This document shows positions 12,581 to 49,415 of a DNA stretch of 64,000 nt, in pieces. Position numbers and translations under genes: made by a program. Source of the DNA: an uncultured Clostridia bacterium (lineage in GTDB: Bacteria > Bacillota > Clostridia > Christensenellales > UBA1750); the NCBI GenBank assembly GCA_947625765.1, contig CANQPP010000001.1, forward strand, positions 71,763 to 135,762. Direction: 5' to 3'. The notes below the pieces were generated by a model. That model ran no database searches. It was given only the letters and a program-made list of their open reading frames with translations, and had not been told where the DNA came from. How positions within the stretch are numbered: the stretch's first letter is position 1; every line of letters starts with the position of its first letter.

Positions 12581-13326
12581 TGAGATTTGTATACCTCCTC
12601 TTTACTGATCCTCTCAAACTCAATCACATGCACCCATGGGTTCGCATCCCAGCCGAATTTTGCACGGTCTGCTGCTTTGATGGTTTTGCCCCAGTAGTTT
12701 GCAAAGGCTATTCTGGCAAATTCAAAACATTGGTCTGGCCTGTCTACGTCTTTGAAGTGATAACCTGGATGATGTTGGGGGTTGGCTCTGTGCCATGTTT
12801 TTCCGCCGTCCAAACTCGCTCTCCACGACGGCGTATACATACCAAAATCTGTATATTTCGCGCCCTCAGCCATGGCTTGTTCCTCAGTTATGTCACGCAA
12901 CCGCTCCACGCGCACGCCCGTGACTCGTAGGAAGATACGTGCAGCTTCTTTGGGCATGTGGATTGATGGACGCCACTTTGGATGCTCTTGTCCTTCCCAG
13001 TCTGCTTTATAAATGTATACATCTGGAAGCCCCGTTTCTGGATCAGCTGCTGTCCAGTCGCTTATTTTTGCAAACGTCTCCCGGACATACAAAATGTCCC
13101 CTTTTTTGTATGGGTTTCTTACACGATAACATCGTGAATTGGATTTTCGGATAAACCACCACTCTCCGAACCAAGAATCATACGGATACGCATCTTCAAA
13201 CGCCGGAGCGTCACGAACTACCCGTCGAGTCACCGTCTTTTGACCACTCAGAAGTGCTCGAACCATATCTTCATTGAATAAGATCGGTTTCATTTCATCT
13301 ACTGTTCTACTTATAAATGGCTTCAT
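12577..13326 (-). CDS. ASCH-like phage protein
   Basis: 249 aa. MKPILFNEDMVRALLSGQKTVTRRVV, then GDILYVRETFAK and ARIFLRVTGVRVERLRDITEEQAMAEGA match the ASCH/PUA-like proteins common in phages: a ligand-binding beta barrel with TxTRR and an RxTF-like motif. ASCH domains bind RNA or nucleosides and some are nucleases or amidohydrolases. The two possible Met starts are 12 codons apart. Overlaps the next gene by 4 nt. Confidence 0.75.
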   Translation of the reverse strand: MKPFISRTVDEMKPILFNEDMVRALLSGQKTVTRRVVRDAPAFEDAYPYDSWFGEWWFIRKSNSRCYRVRNPYKKGDILYVRETFAKISDWTAADPETGLPDVYIYKADWEGQEHPKWRPSIHMPKEAARIFLRVTGVRVERLRDITEEQAMAEGAKYTDFGMYTPSWRASLDGGKTWHRANPQHHPGYHFKDVDRPDQCFEFARIAFANYWGKTIKAADRAKFGWDANPWVHVIEFERISKEEVYKSQ

Positions 13327-13327
13327 T

Positions 13328-13591
13328 TCAAATACTAGTCCCCCGACGATTGGCGAGACATTTCTTCAAATACTCCACTTCTTCTTCCGTCAAATCTTCC
13401 ATGAGCATGTAGTCCTCGCTCCTTACATAGCCCACTTGTCTCAAGAAGTTGTTGAACTCAAACCCAATCTCAAGCAGAACATCATCATTTATCCCCTCGT
13501 AAATACGAAGTTTCGACTTAGCCTTATACTTTGTGTTTGTGCTCTCGTCCTTAAGACCGAATTTGACCGTCAGGCCATATTCATCTTCCAT
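13328..13591 (-). CDS. Hypothetical protein
   Basis: 87 aa from ATG 13591 with GGAG 5 nt upstream. A mixed beta/alpha domain ending in a helix (DLTEEEVEYLKKCLANRRG). Its start lies inside the end of the methyltransferase gene (22-nt overlap), so it is translationally linked to the modification cassette. No family recognised and no simple-sequence tract, unlike the five genes upstream. Confidence 0.55.
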   Translation of the reverse strand: MEDEYGLTVKFGLKDESTNTKYKAKSKLRIYEGINDDVLLEIGFEFNNFLRQVGYVRSEDYMLMEDLTEEEVEYLKKCLANRRGTSI

Positions 13592-14781
13592 GGGTACTCC
13601 ATCTCCTCTCTTAACTTGAAGGCATCCCCGCACTGGATTATGTCAGGGAAGTTATCATTTGCAACTCTCATTGCATACTTATCAATCTCGTAAGCATAAT
13701 ACCGCACGTTGGTGAAGCCCATCTTTTGGAAACAGTATCTGCCCGTTCCGATACCATCGTACATGGATAGCACGATAATCTCTTCGTCCCTTCTCACGTT
13801 CTGGAGAGCGCCGCGCAGAATGTGAATAATCACTTCCGCAGTCCATCCATTTCCCAATCCTTTGTATGCCTGCGAATCAGATACCGACTTGCAATAATCG
13901 TCTGGCAGCGTTTGTAATCTGCAACACTCTTTCACGGTCAGCTTTCTGATGATGTAGCAGCCATCCATAAGTTGTATGGGATACCGACTATTGCCGATAA
14001 CAATTGTCCCGTGTTCTACACGATATATGGGACAATCCAGCGTGCCGCAATACTCGTACATCTGGCAGGAAGTTGTAAGACAGTTGCTCTTTTCTCTCAT
14101 GGCGCGGCCCCGCCGCGTTTTACTATGCGGCATGGAAAGATCAACGCACTCGCCGGGCAGAATATCCACATAGCCCTTCTTAGTGGCTTCTGGAACTCGC
14201 ATAATCGGCACAGCATACAGACCAGTCTTTGCACCAACACCACCGCCTTGACCGCACAAGGTAGTTGACTTCCCGTCCGGCGAGTATACGCGATACTGCT
14301 TACTATTGAACTCTTTGTTCTTAGCTTGGTTCTCAATCGTCCCGATCCTTACGGGAACATCAGAACCTAATGGAGTTAATCCCCCCCCCGCCTGCGCAGC
14401 TAGGCTAGAAGGAGGAGCAAGCGCGTAACCATGTTCGCTGCTCGTTGTCTCAAGAATATCGCGGAGCATAACGTGTCTATCATCCGGCTGGTCAACGCTC
14501 CAGTTGAAAGCATAGAATCGCTGGCGGTTTTGAGCAGAGACGAGAGCGGAGTTAATGTGCATTAGATTGACACCAAGCTCCTTGGAAATCTGATCCTTAA
14601 TTGGCTGTGCTGCTGACTTGTTGTTTTCGTATAAGAATAAGTCCGGCTTGAACTTCTCTTTGGCAATCAAATAATTCTTGAATAGCTCCCAACCAACTCC
14701 TTGGGCCTGCGTTTCCCTATGCCGGGTTTGGGCTATGCTCCAATGAGTGCATGGAGAGCCGCCAATCAAAATCTTTAGTAT
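13570..14781 (-). CDS. Circularly permuted DNA cytosine-C5 methyltransferase (DNMT3-like order); probable AUA start; G9 tract
   Basis: About 403 aa. Motif order is IV (GGSPCTHWS, catalytic Cys near 12), VI (LYENN), VIII (SAQNRQR), IX-X (TVKECCRLQTLP ... YKGLGNGW), and only then motif I (LSMYDGIGTGRYCF) and II/III (YEIDKYA, CGDAFKL) at the C-terminus. Normal C5 enzymes run I to X, so this is a circular permutation. A G9 run at 14381-14389 encodes AGGGL near residue 131 and is in frame here, so the gene is intact. Start: TTG 14787 is only 2 nt from GAGG; ATA 14781 is 8 nt away and gives MLKILIGGSPC, as expected for the family. Confidence 0.88.
   Translation of the reverse strand: MLKILIGGSPCTHWSIAQTRHRETQAQGVGWELFKNYLIAKEKFKPDLFLYENNKSAAQPIKDQISKELGVNLMHINSALVSAQNRQRFYAFNWSVDQPDDRHVMLRDILETTSSEHGYALAPPSSLAAQAGGGLTPLGSDVPVRIGTIENQAKNKEFNSKQYRVYSPDGKSTTLCGQGGGVGAKTGLYAVPIMRVPEATKKGYVDILPGECVDLSMPHSKTRRGRAMREKSNCLTTSCQMYEYCGTLDCPIYRVEHGTIVIGNSRYPIQLMDGCYIIRKLTVKECCRLQTLPDDYCKSVSDSQAYKGLGNGWTAEVIIHILRGALQNVRRDEEIIVLSMYDGIGTGRYCFQKMGFTNVRYYAYEIDKYAMRVANDNFPDIIQCGDAFKLREEMEYPWKMNMA
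14381..14389 (-). repeat. G9 tract inside permuted methyltransferase (in frame)
   Basis: Nine consecutive C on the plus strand (G9 sense). A change by one base would truncate the methyltransferase after about 130 residues. One of five such tracts in five adjacent genes. Confidence 0.9.
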
Positions 14782-14791
14782 AGGCAATTCC

Positions 14792-15830
14792 TCACTTATC
14801 TTTGGCTTTCATTTTCTGAACGTAATCACGGTACTGCTGAGTGTACTCATAGGAATCCTTGAAAATGTTGTGTGCCGCTTTATGAATCAATGGCTCGTAT
14901 GTGGCTACTACCTTCAAATCATCGAATAAATATCGGTTGAAAGGGCAACCGACGCATCCTGTTCTGTTGAACCCCCAGACCTCATAGCAATCGCTATGGG
15001 AAACGTTGAACCGATTTGCGTATTCTTTCTCGTCCTCGTCCTTATACCAGAACAGCGGCCTGTAAAAATCACACCCATCTTCATTGGCATCAAAACAAGA
15101 TTTATAACTGAATGAACGAACGCCGCCTTCTGCTTTTCTAATACCCACAATCATTAAGTCGATGCCGTTCTCTTTAATGAATTTATGGGCAACTTGCTTT
15201 TTTGCGTAATTGCAGCAGTTCTTAGATATTTTGAACCACGGCGGATTCTCGACCATGAATTCTTTTAGATACTTGTTTCGTGAGATGTTGTAGAAGCTGC
15301 GCGGCTCCCGTTTACTCTCTCTCTCTCTCTGCACCGCTGCCGACCGGGTATGCGTTGCACCACCACTTAATCGCCGAAGCGCATCCCGGATATTCCTCCA
15401 CAAGAGTCTCGAACGGCTTATCTTCCCATTTGAACCCATGCCTTTGCAGAGAGTAGATGTTTCCACTCACGTACTTAGAAAGAAACGGCTGGCCGTATTC
15501 TTTGCAAGACTGAGGAATTGACTTGAGAGGCTTGATTTTCTCAATGGTCACTCCATATTTGTTCTCTAAGTCTTTCAAGTGATCTTTAGTGGCCTTGTAT
15601 TCCAACCCGGTGTCGAACCAGATATAGCGTACTTTCCTTTCAACATCCAGCCTAGAGATGATGTCCATCATAATGTCGCTATCTTTGCCTCCAGAGATAG
15701 AACATGCGATATTATGGTGCTTTTGCAGTACAGAGAACGCCTTCGTGAAGCTGTCAAAAATGGCATAGTTGCCATCGGCCTTTTCTAGTAGTTCAGAGAT
15801 AGAATCCAATAAATCACTCCTTTCATACAT
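14792..15830 (-). CDS. PAPS-reductase-family protein 2, frame-broken at an (AG)8 tract
   Basis: Read as one gene with a frameshift. First part (ATG 15830, SD AGGAGG) gives about 172 aa with the PP-loop SISGGKDSDIMMDI and FDTGLEYKATKDHL, then stops at TAA just after GCA-(GA)n. The second part, in another frame to 14792, continues with FYNISRNKYLKEF, KISKNCCNYAKK and the family end NRTGCVGCPFNRY. Adding one AG unit (9 instead of 8) restores a single 346-aa frame. PAPS-reductase-fold enzymes activate or transfer sulfur (including DndC in DNA phosphorothioation). Currently OFF as sequenced, unless the repeat length is an assembly error. Confidence 0.82.
15315..15330 (-). repeat. (AG)8 dinucleotide tract at the frameshift in PAPS-family gene 2
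   Basis: Eight CT units on the plus strand. The upstream frame stops at TAA immediately after it; 9 units would join the two halves. A dinucleotide contingency-locus-like repeat. Confidence 0.92.
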
Positions 15831-16695
15831 TTTGACCTCCTTCCATGTTATCGAACATCAACATCTGACCAGACAGGACATCGTTCTCCATCCACCAGTT
15901 GAACACGTCCTCGCGGTCTTTCCATGCGCACTGGAGTCCTCTCTCCTTGCGCGCTTGAAGCATCTTATCGAACGCCTTTTTATACATCTCCATGTACTTG
16001 GGCCAGCGTTGAAAATCACGGTTCCTCCCAGAAGTTTGCGCTTGCGGACACCCGATGCACCCAACACGATTCCAGCCTTCGCAATATAGCGGATTAACAG
16101 TAATCTTCTCGTCCTTAATGTAGTCCCATACTTCGTCATTATCCCAGTCAATAATGGGGTTACAGACACGAGCAGCCTTGACCCGGCAACTCTCGAATAA
16201 CTGCCGCTTATCATCATTATCGTTCGAGAGAATTACTTCACCATGCGGAGACTCATAAATGCCACGTTTGCGTCGTTTAATGCTTTCAGCCCACCGAACA
16301 CCAGTCACGATAAAGGAATCCTTTATAGTTCCTTCTTTGAGAATGTCGCAGCAGTAACGCACGATTCTTGTCGGCGGCATCAACTTAATAGGAATCAGAG
16401 TCCACATTGACACGGGCTTGTTTTTGTAGCGGGGGGGGGTAATATAACAGTGGATTCCTTCATTCTCAAGCTCATGGAACTGTTCTCTTACGAACCTAAC
16501 AGTCTCTGGAGCATCTGCTGTGGTATGATTATGAGTGACCTCAAATGGGATACCAGCCTTCTTAGCCAGATGAATACATACAGAACTATCCTTACCGCCA
16601 CTATCAGTTAGGATTAACGGCTTCTTATAGTAGCCCAAACTCATATCCGATGCTGACTTTAATCGCTCAATTGCCAATTCCTCTTTATTCGGTAT
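15823..16695 (-). CDS. PAPS-reductase-family protein 1 (intact); probable AUA start; C9 tract
   Basis: About 290 aa. PP-loop LILTDSGGKDSSVCIHLAKK near residue 30, HNHTTADAPETVRFV, RYCCDILKEG, NPIIDWDNDEVWDYI, and the terminal Cys pair VGCIGCPQ. This is the phage PAPS-reductase/adenine-nucleotide alpha-hydrolase type, often next to DNA-modification genes. The open frame extends further upstream, but ATA 16695 sits 6 nt after AAGGTG and gives MPNKEELAIERLKSAS, the usual family N-terminus; the stretch before it is antisense-like to the upstream methyltransferase. A C9 run (16431-16439) encodes TPPR and is in frame. Confidence 0.86.
   Translation of the reverse strand: MPNKEELAIERLKSASDMSLGYYKKPLILTDSGGKDSSVCIHLAKKAGIPFEVTHNHTTADAPETVRFVREQFHELENEGIHCYITPPRYKNKPVSMWTLIPIKLMPPTRIVRYCCDILKEGTIKDSFIVTGVRWAESIKRRKRGIYESPHGEVILSNDNDDKRQLFESCRVKAARVCNPIIDWDNDEVWDYIKDEKITVNPLYCEGWNRVGCIGCPQAQTSGRNRDFQRWPKYMEMYKKAFDKMLQARKERGLQCAWKDREDVFNWWMENDVLSGQMLMFDNMEGGQNV
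16431..16439 (-). repeat. C9 (sense) tract in PAPS-reductase gene 1, in frame
   Basis: Nine G on the plus strand (poly-C in the coding strand). The gene is open through it. One-base slippage would truncate after about 88 residues. Confidence 0.9.
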
Positions 16696-17327
16696 CTGAA
16701 TCACCTTCCTTCTGGTTATAGCCAGCCCATTGTTCTGCCATAGCTTTTGCAATTCCAGAATAAGTTTTGCTTCGCATTTTTGCCCTTTCGGAACTTGGCG
16801 ACATGCGCCATATTCGATGCTCTCTGCCGTCCACAATATTAGTGGGTTTCAACGGAGGCAATCCCTTGAGCCAGAGACAAGTCGCTTTCGTCTCCCCGTG
16901 CCCAAATTGCCACGGCTGAATGATCTGGTCAGGCTTGCGGTATCTAGTAGACATAATGCCAACCGGGTTTTCGATGGCGATCTTCTGACAGTCCGCTTCA
17001 ACAAGTCTCATGAAGAAGTCCACTGCTGTCTGCTGTCTGCCATCCCTGCGCTTTTCCTCAAAATACCTTGCTCCGCTAACAGCCAAGTGCGTGCATGGCG
17101 GAAAAGCCAAAATCATATCCCATGCTCCACGAATGGTGTGTTCTATTCCATCGCAAGTTTCAAAGCTACAACTCCCATTTAATAAAGGCAAACAATCTTG
17201 CCTAATATGCCATTCTAATACCCCCCCCCGAACAAGGAAGGAGGTCGCAAGAATAGGCTTCATGGCCTAATCGCCGCAATTCTTTCGTTACGGCCTGCGA
17301 TTCTTCGCATGCCACCAAAATTTTCAA
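16685..17327 (-). CDS. Phage cytosine-C5 methyltransferase-like protein, frame-broken at a G9 tract
   Basis: The start TTG 17327 (AAGGAG 7 nt upstream) gives MKILVACEESQAVTKELRRLGH then AYSCDLLPCSGGG, and meets a stop two codons after the G9. The rest, in another frame, reads VLEWHIRQDCLPLLNG, LAFPPCTHLAVSGARYF (PPC motif) and IAIENPVGIMS (ENP), the family's catalytic part. With G7 the junction reads CSGGVLEWHI, the family's usual spacing; G10 also restores the frame. Full length would be about 213 aa. It is OFF as sequenced. Overlaps the Dam-like gene at its 5' end and PAPS gene 1 at its 3' end. Confidence 0.84.
17221..17229 (-). repeat. G9 tract breaking the C5 methyltransferase-like gene
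   Basis: Nine C on the plus strand. The upstream frame ends GGGY-stop directly after the run; the conserved EWHI segment is one base out of frame. Confidence 0.92.
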
Positions 17328-17780
17328 CACTTTGCTCCTTCGATTTGCTATTGTAGACCACGACCATCGACGGAAACGGCGCAGGATCAGCAGTTACGCC
17401 ATCATCGTCCGTGAAGCGCAGCCTTCCCCGAACAAATCTAATCTCTGCTTTTCCGTAAATGTAATCATGGAAGTATTGCGTATCAGTCCTTGCAGGTATT
17501 AAGAGGACAATCTCATCCCCCCCCGCATAGATTCTGAATACGCCTTTTCGACCCATTTCCCAATTTCTCTGCCATAGGGCGGATTACAAAACACCGCGCC
17601 GCCAACATCCCAGCTTTGTTCAAGCCCATTTGTTTCTGGAGTGAAATACATCGAGCACTTGGCCGTCTTATCAGTCGCCGCCGCATCCAGTTTAAAATGA
17701 AACTCCCGGTCAAGCTCATCATAGAAACTTTGCGGAGTACACCAATCCATTTTCTTAGAACTTAGAAGAGCCTTATTCAT
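17260..17780 (-). CDS. Phage N6-adenine methyltransferase (Dam-like), frame-broken at a G8 tract
   Basis: Starts at ATG 17780: MNKALLSSKKMDWCTPQSF, DREFHFKLDAAATD, then FCNPPYGREIGKWVEKAY with the catalytic NPPY. This frame ends soon after the G8. The continuation in the next frame reads DEIVLLIPARTDTQYFHDY, EIRFVRGRLRF and APFPSMVVVY, the remainder of the phage DNA N-6-adenine methyltransferase family. G9 instead of G8 joins them into about 173 aa. First gene of the modification cassette; weak SD. As sequenced it is OFF. Confidence 0.86.
17517..17524 (-). repeat. G8 tract breaking the Dam-like methyltransferase
   Basis: Eight C on the plus strand. One more G restores the frame through the conserved LIPARTDT motif. 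Confidence 0.92.
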
Positions 17781-17819
17781 GCTTCTGCCGCTATTCTCTT
17801 TTCTGCTATTTGAAAGTAA

Positions 17820-18167
17820 TCATTTCGCTCCGACTAGCCCCTTAATAATTTCCAGCATCCCTTCCGCTGTTTTATCTCCGATAACTTGGGGGATATTAGA
17901 CCCGCTCCTATCTTCGATCATCATCTCAAGGTGATTGTTCCGAACACCGTAACTGTAGAAGTCTTGGACCACATCGCATACTCTTCGGTCATCATCGGCG
18001 GGCACGACGATTTGCCATCCATCACAAAACTTTGAGATTGTATGCTCGATTCTTTCATCCTTAAGCATCTTATGGAGTTTCAAAATCTCTGTATACTTCT
18101 CGTTTGTTATGTAGCGAAAATCACTATCATAAAGTTTGCTTAAATCAATATCAATTTTCTGGCTCAT
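17820..18167 (-). CDS. Hypothetical protein
   Basis: 115 aa from ATG 18167 (SD AAGGAG). Contains a charged helix (YTEILKLHKMLKDERIEH) followed by a strand pattern (WQIVVPADDDRRVCDVV). No family recognised. Directly upstream of the methyltransferase cassette, with only about 40 bp between them. Confidence 0.55.
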   Translation of the reverse strand: MSQKIDIDLSKLYDSDFRYITNEKYTEILKLHKMLKDERIEHTISKFCDGWQIVVPADDDRRVCDVVQDFYSYGVRNNHLEMMIEDRSGSNIPQVIGDKTAEGMLEIIKGLVGAK

Positions 18168-41891: not shown

Positions 41892-44600
41892 ATCGCGCTA
41901 GACAAGCAGGTCAACATTTACGCGGTTGACACGAGCGCCTTCTACACCGACGAAGAGAAGGAGTTGGAGGACGCGCTGAACAAGGCAAGAGCAGAGCGCA
42001 ATTCTCTGGTTAAGGAAGCCTTGGTCATTCGGAAGTACCATGCGGGGGAACTCACAGAAAAGAAGGCCATGAATCAGCTCCATGCCTTATACAAGGATAA
42101 AGATGAGGAGCTTCGGCCTACGGCGGTTCCCAGTGAAGCTCGGCTAGGTGTTATCAAGCTGGAGAAACAATGCTGCGTGGTCAAGATAGCAAGCCTAAAG
42201 GAGCAGCTCTTACAGCTACTCAAGCGGCATGAAGGGGTACGGGAGCTTCGCCCGGAGGAGTTAAATGTACAGCACATAGTATCGGTGTTCGATTCTGCGT
42301 TGACACGTGCGCTTAAAATGGACATCAATGGGCTTTATAACGACATCATTATCGTCAAAACCTACTTTTTCGACGTGTTCAAGAACATCGTTGAGGATGG
42401 GTTCACCTACCAAGGTGACAGATATGTGCTGTTGACAGCCTCGGCGGGGCAAATCAGAACGAAGAAATCCGTCTTTATTAAGGAGAAAAGACTGCAAGAA
42501 GTACAGGATGTTATCAGCTGTGGGCTGTCTGTGGACGATATAAACGCTCACGGCGGCGTTAATGTCAATAAGTACCTTGCTTATCTGGCCTTGAGCAACA
42601 GCGCGACGGACGTTATCCCGTGGTTTGACATCGACAGGTGCATCGTGGTGGACGATTTGGAGACTACTGTGACCAGCATGGTGGACTTCGTGGACGAGAA
42701 AACCTATACAGTGCATCGGCAAGAGATGTCCTTCCCTATCACTCATACGGACGGGTGCGGGATGATACTCCCTTCTGCATCGAAGAAGAACTTCATGATC
42801 CGCTTGCCATGGATAAAGGGCTTGCTGGCAGTGTTTCCGTTCGATAAGTTCATAAATCAGGCAAATATGTACAAAAACGACGGAAATAGTGCAAAAATCA
42901 AGGATATTTATGGCGAAACGCACGATATTTTGGCAGAAAATATCAATATTATTTTCACCAAAAGCCAGTTCAAGATGTGGAAATACTATTCCAGTTGGGA
43001 TGAGTATAAGGAGAAGTTCAAGCGTTTCGGCTGCACGGCGGGCATGTGTAACGAGGAAGATGATAAGATACAGGACGCCAAGATCAACTACCAGATGCTC
43101 CAGACGCTCACAGACCTGCGGGAGGACGAGCTGGAGCACATTGTAGGCAAAACGGCGTACAAAATCTCCTCCATCTCTTCCGACCGGGAGACCATGTTGC
43201 GTGTGTTCGGCGCGACCACGAAGAACCAGCACAAAAACTACTTTCAACAGTGCCTTCTCCTCTATCCCGAACTTCTACAGGATGAGTATTGCCGAGACAT
43301 GCTCCGCAGCATCAAGGGGAGTCTGGAGAAAGAAGCCTGGTCTGGCCGGGTGGATGTGTATGGGAAGTACACCTTTGTCGTGCCGGACATGTTCGCTTTC
43401 TGCCAGCACCTGTTCTGTGGCGAGGCCATCCCTACCGGGCTGCTAAAGAATGGCGAAGTGTACTGCCGCCTGTTCCGTGCCCCGGAGCTTGACTGCTTGA
43501 GAAGTCCCCATCTGTACCGGGAGCATGCCATCCGAACGAATGTCGCCCCGGAGAAGCCGGAGATGGCGGAGTGGTTCTGCACGGATGCTATCTATACTAG
43601 CATCGAGGACAACATTAGCAAGATTCTCATGTTCGACTGTGACGGTGATAAGCTGCTGGTGTGTGCCGATAAGGTTCTCGTACAGGCGGCGAAGCGCAAC
43701 ATGGAGGGCATTGTTCCGCTGTACTACGAGATGGCGAAGGCTGGCTCTATGCCCCTTACCCCTACCGTTATGTATAACGGCATGATCGCGGCATATACGG
43801 GCGGGAACATCGGCCAGATAAGCAACGACATCACGAAGGTGTGGAACAACCCGGAGCCAGACCTTGAAGTCATTAAGCTCCTGTGCATGGAGAACAACTT
43901 CACAATCGACTATGCCAAGACCTTGTATAAGCCCGTCCGCCCGCCGGAAGCCGAGAAAAGGATAACGGAAGCTACGCGGCGGCAGCTCCCCCACTACTTC
44001 ATCTGGGCAAAAGATAAGCGTGAAGACCAGGTGGCCCCGCCGGGGACTGGATGCGTGGACAAGATACTGGACATGATCCCGAAGGGTAGGTTGCGCTTTG
44101 ACCAGAAGAAGAACGGGAAACTCAACTACCACCTGCTTATGCAGAACTGGCGGCTCGATATGGAAGAAGAGAAGGCTAAGGAAGTTCTTGCCGCCTATAA
44201 GGGTGCTGTCGCAGACATTGGCACGGTGATGTACTTCTCTGAAGATCAGCAGGACAATAGCAACTACATTCTTGGTCAACTCAGGGACAAGCTGACCGCT
44301 ATTGCTCCTATGGAGTACGTTACTGATGTGCTGGTAAAGCATCTCTTCCACCAAAAACATACCCCGCGCAAGGTGGTTTTCTGGAATCTGTGCGGAGAGC
44401 AGGTCTTGAAGAACTTGCAGGCCAATATCTCGACCAAGACCTTCTACTGTGTGAGCTGCGGGAAGCGTGTGGTGCGCAGGCATCCGAACCAGACGCGCTG
44501 CGACCAGTGTGCCGCCGATAGAAGGAAGGCGTACAATGCGGAGAAACAGCGGGAATACCGTAGAAAAAAGCGAGAATCATGTACCCCGTTGAGTCAATGA
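41892..44600 (+). CDS. Single-subunit YonO/QDE-1-like RNA polymerase; probable AUC start
   Basis: About 902 aa. The active-site loop ISKILMFDCDGDKLLV holds the DxDGD signature (near 580) of two-barrel RNA polymerases; upstream are LLKNGEVYCRLFRAPEL and SPHLYREHAI (basic substrate-binding box). The end has two CxxC pairs (CVSCGKRV, CDQCAA) and a basic tail. SPbeta YonO is of comparable size and transcribes late genes. The first standard start, TTG 41964, cuts off NIYAVDTSAFYTDEE; an in-frame ATC at 41892, 7 nt after GAGGTGG, includes it. It likely reads the structural genes to the right. Confidence 0.82.
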   Translation: MALDKQVNIYAVDTSAFYTDEEKELEDALNKARAERNSLVKEALVIRKYHAGELTEKKAMNQLHALYKDKDEELRPTAVPSEARLGVIKLEKQCCVVKIASLKEQLLQLLKRHEGVRELRPEELNVQHIVSVFDSALTRALKMDINGLYNDIIIVKTYFFDVFKNIVEDGFTYQGDRYVLLTASAGQIRTKKSVFIKEKRLQEVQDVISCGLSVDDINAHGGVNVNKYLAYLALSNSATDVIPWFDIDRCIVVDDLETTVTSMVDFVDEKTYTVHRQEMSFPITHTDGCGMILPSASKKNFMIRLPWIKGLLAVFPFDKFINQANMYKNDGNSAKIKDIYGETHDILAENINIIFTKSQFKMWKYYSSWDEYKEKFKRFGCTAGMCNEEDDKIQDAKINYQMLQTLTDLREDELEHIVGKTAYKISSISSDRETMLRVFGATTKNQHKNYFQQCLLLYPELLQDEYCRDMLRSIKGSLEKEAWSGRVDVYGKYTFVVPDMFAFCQHLFCGEAIPTGLLKNGEVYCRLFRAPELDCLRSPHLYREHAIRTNVAPEKPEMAEWFCTDAIYTSIEDNISKILMFDCDGDKLLVCADKVLVQAAKRNMEGIVPLYYEMAKAGSMPLTPTVMYNGMIAAYTGGNIGQISNDITKVWNNPEPDLEVIKLLCMENNFTIDYAKTLYKPVRPPEAEKRITEATRRQLPHYFIWAKDKREDQVAPPGTGCVDKILDMIPKGRLRFDQKKNGKLNYHLLMQNWRLDMEEEKAKEVLAAYKGAVADIGTVMYFSEDQQDNSNYILGQLRDKLTAIAPMEYVTDVLVKHLFHQKHTPRKVVFWNLCGEQVLKNLQANISTKTFYCVSCGKRVVRRHPNQTRCDQCAADRRKAYNAEKQREYRRKKRESCTPLSQ

Positions 44601-48356: not shown

Positions 48357-49415
48357 ATGGCCTCTAGTGCTAATAGCCGACTCGTTTGGTGTACGGTTGA
48401 GAGAGTAGGAAGAATCAGCCCGGAGAATAAGGAGAAGTACGAGAGATACTTTAAAGCGTGCAGGAAGGTCAACAAGTTCAAGACTACCTATACAGTATAC
48501 TACGGTATCCTTAAGCAGTTCATGTGCTTTCTTGCGATCTACCACGATAACATTGATGTTTACTCCGACGACTTCATGTTGAACGGCGCGGACATCATGA
48601 CGGACTTCTTGGATTTTTGCCAAGATACCCTACACAACCATACCAGTGCGATCAATACTAAGGTAGCCGCTGTAAAATCCTTCTTCAACTGGTCTGTGGA
48701 GAAGGGCTATATTCAGAAGTCCCCGTTTGAGATGCGGGAAATCAAGCTGCACTACCCGAAGGAAGCCGGGCCAATAAGCCCCTCTTATTATCTTACAGAA
48801 GAACAAGTAGCGAAAATTAGATACAACCTGGAGGTTGACGAGAACTTCGACATGCAGGATCAGCTCCTGTTCGAGCTGGCATATGACAGTGCGAACTGCA
48901 TCGGGGTTCTGGAGTCTCTATCCTTGGAGAAGCTGGACATGGAGAACAGTATGTTCGTCGGCATCAAGGAGAAGCGCGGCAAGGTGATTGACGTGGTATT
49001 CTCTGAAAAGACCGCCGAGCTGTTGAAGAAGTGGATGAGTCTTAGGAAGAATGGGTTTGACTATCTGACCATTGATTCACCCTTCATTACCTACTACGGC
49101 AAGAAGTACGTGCCCATGGCCCGTGGAGCCATACATCGGCGTATCCGAAAGTATGGCAAGACAATAGGGATAGACAACTTACGGTCGGAGTCTCTGCGCA
49201 AGTCTCGCTTATCTAACATCTTCGCCGTGACGGGAGATATGCTCACCGAACAACAGCGGAAGAAGATGGAAAAGGAACAGCTTGCGGTCGCGCCCGGCGG
49301 CGATACTCAAGGTTTTGTGGATGCTATCGAGCAGAAGATGGACATCCGCGACCGGGTGGCGAAGCTCAGAAAAGAGCGGGAGAAAGCTGGTGAGATGAAT
49401 GGCGACAAGGCGTGA
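48357..49415 (+). CDS. Tyrosine-recombinase-like protein without intact active site
   Basis: 352 aa. The SAM-like core-binding domain is clear (YERYFKACRKVNKFKTTYTVYYGILKQFMCFLAIY ... TKVAAVKSFFNWSVEKGYI). In the catalytic part the first Arg box is YDSANCIGVLESLSLEKL (no Arg), ESLRKSRLSNIF has E in place of His, and no Tyr box follows. The C-terminal end is a charged coiled coil. So it probably binds DNA without recombining it. SPbeta carries similar proteins. Confidence 0.7.
   Translation: MASSANSRLVWCTVERVGRISPENKEKYERYFKACRKVNKFKTTYTVYYGILKQFMCFLAIYHDNIDVYSDDFMLNGADIMTDFLDFCQDTLHNHTSAINTKVAAVKSFFNWSVEKGYIQKSPFEMREIKLHYPKEAGPISPSYYLTEEQVAKIRYNLEVDENFDMQDQLLFELAYDSANCIGVLESLSLEKLDMENSMFVGIKEKRGKVIDVVFSEKTAELLKKWMSLRKNGFDYLTIDSPFITYYGKKYVPMARGAIHRRIRKYGKTIGIDNLRSESLRKSRLSNIFAVTGDMLTEQQRKKMEKEQLAVAPGGDTQGFVDAIEQKMDIRDRVAKLRKEREKAGEMNGDKA

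What the first reader, a model, noticed from the sequence alone, without database searches (positions are those of the whole stretch)
13570..17780. Phase-variable-looking DNA-modification cassette: five consecutive genes, each with one long simple-sequence tract
Seen in sequence: Dam-like MTase (G8, 17517), C5 MTase-like (G9, 17221), PAPS-reductase-family 1 (C9, 16431), PAPS-family 2 ((AG)8, 15315) and permuted C5 MTase (G9, 14381). Three are frame-broken exactly at the tract: the Dam-like gene needs G9, the C5 MTase G7 or G10, and PAPS-family 2 (AG)9. Two are in frame. I saw no G, C or dinucleotide tract of this length elsewhere in coding DNA. This is how bacterial contingency loci switch by slippage, but here every gene of one phage modification operon can switch independently, giving up to 32 epigenetic states. 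It could diversify virion DNA against restriction systems.
Basis: partly seen in the sequence, partly recalled or inferred. Interest (0 to 1): 0.92.

Follow-up and report, generated by a model that had tools for sequence, protein, structure and literature searches.

The report
Slippage-switched DNA-modification genes in phages
A virus of gut-type bacteria carries five neighbouring DNA-modification genes, each with a stuttering stretch of DNA that can grow or shrink and so turn the gene on or off, and close relatives of some of these genes are caught in both states.

Summary
The only G/C runs of 8 or more and the only dinucleotide run of 6 or more in the 64-kb window lie one each in five consecutive genes: Dam, C5 methyltransferase, two PAPS-reductase-family genes and a permuted C5 methyltransferase. 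Three change frame exactly at the tract. One detail was wrong: the C5 register.

The locus is in a large prophage. Relatives support switching by slippage. In 176 dereplicated, protein-selected loci, 30 of 59 tracts fall in modification genes, about ten times the outside rate. Of 39 homologs with a tract 15 are broken, all at the tract; of 195 without, 8 are broken. Near-identical phages differ in tract length and frame: the cleanest pair has no substitution in 7,885 bp, with Dam G9 open and G8 broken. The virion-producing phage FP_Lagaffe (G7, broken) has a 97% identical relative (G8, open). Eleven further loci carry tracts in two or more modification genes. Sequence below the breaks stays under purifying selection.

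The switch is well supported as a class, most strongly for Dam; in this phage itself it rests on tract and frame. Restriction evasion and the sulfur chemistry are inferred. My paper searches found no phage modification cassette switched this way.

The parts
17260..17780 (-). Dam-like N6-adenine MTase gene, frame changes at its tract
   Evidence: PF05869 in both halves; PHROG 111; frames
17517..17524 (-). G8 tract (coding strand) in Dam, site A
   Evidence: same site holds G8-G10 in relatives
16685..17330 (-). C5-type DNA MTase gene, frame changes at its tract (start near 17330 is my reading)
   Evidence: phrog_757 1e-56 for the downstream part; frames
17221..17229 (-). G9 tract (coding strand) in the C5 MTase
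   Evidence: G11 at the same site in L199
15823..16836 (-). PAPS-reductase-family gene 1, open across its tract
   Evidence: PF01507 3e-24; ORF
16431..16439 (-). C9 tract (coding strand) in PAPS-family 1
14792..15830 (-). PAPS-reductase-family gene 2, frame changes at its tract
   Evidence: PF01507 in both halves; ORFs 15312-15830 and 14792-15466
15315..15330 (-). (AG)8 tract (coding strand) in PAPS-family 2
13570..14787 (-). Permuted C5 cytosine MTase gene, open across its tract
   Evidence: PF00145 2e-21; phrog_17284, phrog_116, phrog_363
14381..14389 (-). G9 tract (coding strand) in the permuted C5 MTase

Best explanation
This is a prophage-borne DNA-modification operon whose genes are contingency loci. 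Strand slippage during DNA replication changes the length of one simple-sequence tract per gene and moves that gene in or out of frame, so a phage lineage becomes a mixture of modification genotypes. In the assembled copy PAPS-family 1 and the permuted C5 MTase are open; Dam, C5 and PAPS-family 2 are off. Shown here: the tracts and their clustering; breaks at tracts; tract-length and frame differences between near-identical relatives (Dam); tracts recurring in the same gene kinds of other phages; purifying selection below the breaks. Inferred: that all five tracts switch in this phage, that the enzymes modify DNA, and that the benefit is bet-hedging of virion DNA against varied host restriction.
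For: Clustering beyond codon-usage expectation. 30 of 59 tracts in modification genes over 176 dereplicated loci (p 7e-16). Broken 15 of 39 with tract, all at the tract, against 8 of 195 without. Near-identical pairs with different length and frame: L318/L319 (no substitution in 7,885 bp), L141/L150, L165/L182, L179/L185, L337/L350, FP_Lagaffe/L331. dN/dS 0.04-0.14 below the tract in five site-A pairs with unsaturated dS. Same PAPS-family site with (AG)8 in L063 and G9 in L320. Eleven dereplicated loci with tracts in two or more modification genes.
Against: No reads; no close relative of this very phage was found, so switching is not shown for these five tracts. None of 17 PAPS-family 2 homologs has a tract, and 61 of 73 permuted C5 and 74 of 81 C5 homologs are intact and tract-free, so tracts are optional. 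The host has mutS1, which could lower slippage rates. Some broken homologs without a tract look like plain decay (L177, L140). About half of all tracts lie outside modification genes (29 of 59). Many identical contig pairs do not differ at the tract.
Confidence: 0.82

Rival explanations
1. The same slippage switch exists, but it serves the lysogen: the prophage enzymes change methylation of the host chromosome (a phage-borne phasevarion) or protect the host from other phages, and virion protection is secondary.
For: The operon sits in a prophage. The host genome has 26 other G/C runs of 8 or more, including a frame-broken MmeI-type R-M gene.
Against: Tract-bearing modification genes are found in many viral contigs, including next to packaging and replication genes, and in phages that make virions. 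No evidence on expression in the lysogen.
Confidence: 0.3
2. The genes are decaying pseudogenes and the runs are incidental.
For: Three of five genes are broken in this assembly. A few homologs are broken without a tract (8 of 195).
Against: Breaks sit at tracts (15 of 15); low dN/dS below the tract; open and broken states in near-identical phages; synonymous sites saturated between the window and site-A relatives while the run persists.
Confidence: 0.06
3. Assembly or sequencing error at homopolymers makes intact genes look broken.
For: Homopolymers are error-prone; no reads were available here.
Against: Error does not explain why the long runs exist only in these genes, an (AG)8 break, differences of 5 bases (G13 against G8), or the same state recurring in several samples (L309, L318, L344 G9; L286, L319 G8).
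Confidence: 0.06
4. Programmed ribosomal or transcriptional slippage at the tract makes the full protein from the broken frame, so that length is not a switch.
For: Runs can cause slippage by RNA polymerase or ribosome (general knowledge).
Against: Tract length and frame vary between near-identical phages, both open and broken, and one tract is a dinucleotide repeat. Leaky expression in the off state is not excluded.
Confidence: 0.08

Closest known systems
Bacterial contingency loci and phase-variable R-M genes (phasevarions), e.g. G9-tract MTase of Helicobacter pylori HPK5 (PMC12003011, passages read; review PMC12707154, passages read)
   Same: Poly-G or dinucleotide run inside an MTase reading frame; off and on by length; runs clustered in one functional class.
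   Different: Here the genes are phage genes, five in a row, and include PAPS-family genes.
CUS-3 prophage neuO, phase-variable capsule O-acetyltransferase (PMC3046976, start of abstract in the listing; its repeat type is recalled)
   Same: A prophage gene described as phase-variable.
   Different: One gene for a host surface change, not DNA modification.
Phage Dam family (PF05869, TIGR01712)
   Same: Dam halves match.
   Different: Split by a tract at one of two sites; many relatives intact without a tract (33 of 59).
DndC / SspD / BrxP sulfur-family proteins
   Same: PAPS-family 1 hits BrxP (1e-19) and DndC weakly (7e-8); PAPS-family 2 N half hits SspD (6e-8).
   Different: DndC equivalog score 25 of 290 bits; I did not search the rest of the window for Dnd or Ssp partners.

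Membership tests
Simple-sequence contingency locus | Unstable-length repeat inside or beside the gene | tested here: met
   Five tracts, more than codon usage gives
Simple-sequence contingency locus | Length differs between close relatives and changes the frame | tested here: met
   Met for Dam in relatives. For the window's own phage no close relative was found
Simple-sequence contingency locus | Reversible switching at measurable rate in culture | not testable with these tools
   No reads or cultures
Phasevarion | Switching of an MTase alters expression of many genes | not testable with these tools
   No expression or methylome data
Phage Dam MTase (PF05869 / TIGR01712) | Score over curated cut-off | tested here: met
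   Pfam 73 of 28.1 bits for the N half; TIGR01712 70.4 of 97.05 for that half alone, as expected for half a protein
C5 cytosine MTase (PF00145) | Score over cut-off, order of motifs | tested here: met
   Permuted C5 gene 77.5 of 22 bits; TIGR00675 72.6 of 100.65, below its cut-off
DndC phosphorothioation (TIGR03183) | Score over curated cut-off | tested here: not met
   25.2 of 290.4 bits for PAPS-family 1; no hit listed for PAPS-family 2
DndC phosphorothioation (TIGR03183) | Partners DndB, DndD, DndE or SspB beside it | not tested
   PADLOC was run on six proteins only

The most novel reading that the evidence does not exclude
Phages, many of them probably of gut Clostridia, carry combinatorial, slippage-switched modification cassettes (Dam plus C5, N4/N6 and sulfur-family genes). 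Each phage population then holds many epigenetic genotypes, a phage-encoded bet-hedge against restriction and a way to change host range without changing the tail.
Probability: 0.55. Interest if true: 0.88.

Novelty: new variant of a known kind. Interest (0 to 1): 0.8.

Why it matters
If true, phages use the stochastic gene switching known from bacterial surface and restriction genes to vary the chemical state of their own DNA. That could contribute to host-range shifts without receptor change: FP_Lagaffe, whose Dam is off by tract length here, is reported to make virions in two bacteria related only at the order level (PMC5883640, passages read). It would also mean that some phage methyltransferases annotated as split or short are switched off, not lost. 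FP_Lagaffe is a cultured system in which this can be tested.

Tried and rejected
Megablast of window 5000-27000 against 50,697 phage records: no match. Sensitive search of 13300-17900: 19 records, none covering 80%. DNA search of the operon in 61 related genomes: only self, G003 (69-74%, permuted C5 only) and a 34-base match in G016. So no close relative of this very phage was found. PAPS-family 1 gave one and PAPS-family 2 seven relatives in IMG/VR, few for a tract comparison. I considered that open alternative frames below Dam site A mean overlapping coding: they are open for 37-61 codons in nine relatives but not in the window, so I dropped it. I looked for the other half of the host DUF1538 gene to prove the right prophage end; both matches lie on contig 1 at the left end. 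Structure prediction and fold search were not run. Solved-structure search found only PAPS/APS reductases and CysD for PAPS-family 1, and HhaI, HaeIII and DNMT3-type MTases for the permuted C5.

Limits of the counts. One search is not dereplicated and drops homologs with under 60% query cover (number not counted). Of its 8 breaks without a tract, L185 and L071 have a G7 at the break, and L114, L128, L129 and L205 may be alignment gaps. One search used 7 further queries taken from tract-bearing loci, which leans towards my reading; with the original queries it is 40 of 74 tracts in 187 kb of 2.31 Mb, not dereplicated. Of the eleven multi-tract loci, L304, L320, L345, L370 and L375 come from scans that selected for a tract, and L179 and L184 are about 92% alike. 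The 108 new loci were selected for a tract and serve only for lengths and pairs; 58 show one Dam frame and 50 two. Frame state is read from tblastn frames. In L182 the run also carries a substitution. L076 (run lost) and L173 (G9) are both open, a 3-base difference. No chance expectation was computed for the host's own runs.

Papers: ten searches (cap reached), eight of them on phase variation or repeats in phages, one on PAPS genes, one on Lagaffe. None of the listings named a phage DNA-modification gene switched by a simple repeat. PMC10477858 (gut phage methylation) has no hit for five phase-variation terms (nothing else of it seen). The library lacks most subscription papers and I read listings and passages only, so absence is weak evidence.
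Full report
What is there. The window is bases 71763-135762 of contig 1 (155,297 bp) of a 2.54-Mb, 99-contig genome. Left of the window the contig changes from bacterial to phage-type genes at a large serine recombinase (resolvase, recombinase and zinc-ribbon domains), beside a DUF1538 gene whose first repeat is cut down to profile positions 167-211. The right end of the contig is still in tail genes (tape measure). I read this as an integrated prophage of more than 90 kb; its right end was not found. Most of the 19 titled genome contigs with a permuted C5 homolog are Clostridia, so a clostridial host is inferred, not shown.

The tracts. Five consecutive minus-strand genes each hold one long simple repeat, and these are the only G/C runs of 8 or more and the only dinucleotide run of 6 or more in 64 kb. 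The 79.5 kb of contig 1 fetched outside the window has no G/C run of 8 or more (L007-L010 not listed; the first 11.8 kb was not fetched). Three genes change frame at the tract and two read through. With the phage's own codon usage four such runs in these genes were never drawn in 5,000 trials.

Relatives: enrichment. I collected 217 loci from IMG/VR and GTDB contigs by protein similarity, not by tract, plus one locus of a related genome. In these 218, 40 of 74 tracts fall in homologs of the five genes, which make up 187 kb of 2.31 Mb. Dereplicated to 176 loci and with a wider query set it is 30 of 59, or 0.166 per kb inside and 0.0168 outside (p 7e-16). By gene, tracts occur in 23 of 59 Dam, 7 of 81 C5, 8 of 73 permuted C5, 1 of 4 PAPS-family 1 and 0 of 17 PAPS-family 2 homologs.

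Relatives: frame. Homologs with a tract are broken in 15 of 39 cases, each at the tract; homologs without one in 8 of 195 (Fisher p 3e-8, not dereplicated). Dam has two tract sites. Site A is the one in the window (after about codon 84; G8-G10 in relatives). Site B lies just before the FCNPPYG motif (G7-G11 in the protein-selected set). Tract-free relatives of site B write the same glycines with mixed codons. A DNA pattern for site B with eight or more G found 98 stretches in IMG/VR, and one for site A found 17; run lengths there reach 17.

Relatives: switching. Near-identical phages differ in tract length and frame. L318 and L319 share 7,885 bp with no substitution and one gap: Dam G9 (open) against G8 (broken). 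In this group L309, L318 and L344 are open and L286 and L319 broken, each from a different IMG/VR dataset. L141/L150 (99.8%), L165/L182 (99.5%), L179/L185 (98.4%), L337/L350 (98-99%) and FP_Lagaffe/L331 (97.2%) show open against broken in other lineages. Other pairs differ in length with both broken (L329/L369, L300/L323), and many near-identical pairs do not differ. FP_Lagaffe is reported to make virions from F. prausnitzii A2-165, and its virions were detected in Blautia hansenii cultures (PMC5883640, passages). Phage nd12 has a broken Dam with G9 at site A, and Enterocloster phage PMBT24 has a C5 frame change in an alignment gap that holds a G7.

Relatives: the cassette. Eleven loci (dereplicated at 95%) carry tracts in two or more modification genes: Dam plus an N4/N6 MTase (L179, L184, L370, L375), Dam plus PAPS family (L304, L320, L345), C5 plus PAPS family (L197, L199), and a C5-type plus an N4/N6 MTase (L075, L118) (Pfam or PHROG labels for L118, L179, L304, L320, L345 and L375; L075 and L370 by tblastn only). 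None of these has five. At one site of a PAPS-family gene L063 has (AG)8 and L320 has G9; L197 and L199 have G8 and G9 at one site of another. Different repeat types and different sites in one gene family point to repeated gain under selection.

Selection. Below the tract, five site-A pairs with unsaturated synonymous change give dN/dS 0.04-0.14; four of the five compare two broken copies. In nine pairs dS is saturated and pN/pS is 0.11-0.34; one more (L062/L180) gives 0.07 at dS 2.6. Between the window and its site-A relatives synonymous sites are near saturation, yet the run persists. These are signs of genes in use, not decay.

Mechanism. Slippage at replication changes run length, the frame opens or closes, and the genotype is inherited. 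The genes abut or overlap, so effects on neighbours are possible. The host has mutS1, so the slippage rate on phage DNA is uncertain; the phage has its own DNA polymerase III alpha-type gene, which might matter (inference). The host genome has 26 further G/C runs of 8 or more, among them a frame-broken MmeI-type gene and a frame-broken acyltransferase gene, so the host lineage may use the same device.

Function. Dam and both C5 enzymes are expected to methylate DNA by family. The PAPS-family proteins are not DndC by score. They hit BrxP and SspD models, and a PHROG profile labelled PAPS reductase also matches Dam weakly (phrog_33262, 3e-4). This fits a role in DNA modification but does not show it. 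Restriction evasion is the likeliest benefit; control of the lysogen is the main alternative.

Novelty. Slippage-switched R-M genes in bacteria are well known (PMC12003011, PMC12707154, passages). A prophage-borne phase-variable gene, neuO, is known (abstract start). None of my ten paper searches listed a phage DNA-modification cassette switched this way.

Noticed in passing
L081 10681 and L082 8046; also L077 16313 and L184 5443: Poly-G runs just upstream of small genes that look like terminase small subunits (my reading, no family search). L081 and L082 are identical over 8,093 bp except G10 against G9 at this run.
   Followed up: partly
window 41964-44600: 878-aa protein matches PF05183 (RdRP, 4e-12); from recall this resembles YonO-type phage RNA polymerases.
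   Followed up: no
window 48357-49415: Tyrosine recombinase (PF00589) in a prophage that also has a large serine recombinase at its left end.
   Followed up: no
host contig 38, position 1593 (L056): Host MmeI-type restriction-modification gene broken at a G10 run, with MmeI domains on both sides.
   Followed up: partly
L179 9821 and L185 7275: A G9/G10 run just upstream of a gene that reads like an XRE-type repressor (my reading) differs between these phages.
   Followed up: no
L320 5927 and L321 5599: The only gap in 10,189 bp between these two phages is a G9/G8 run beside a small open frame, not in the Dam tract.
   Followed up: no
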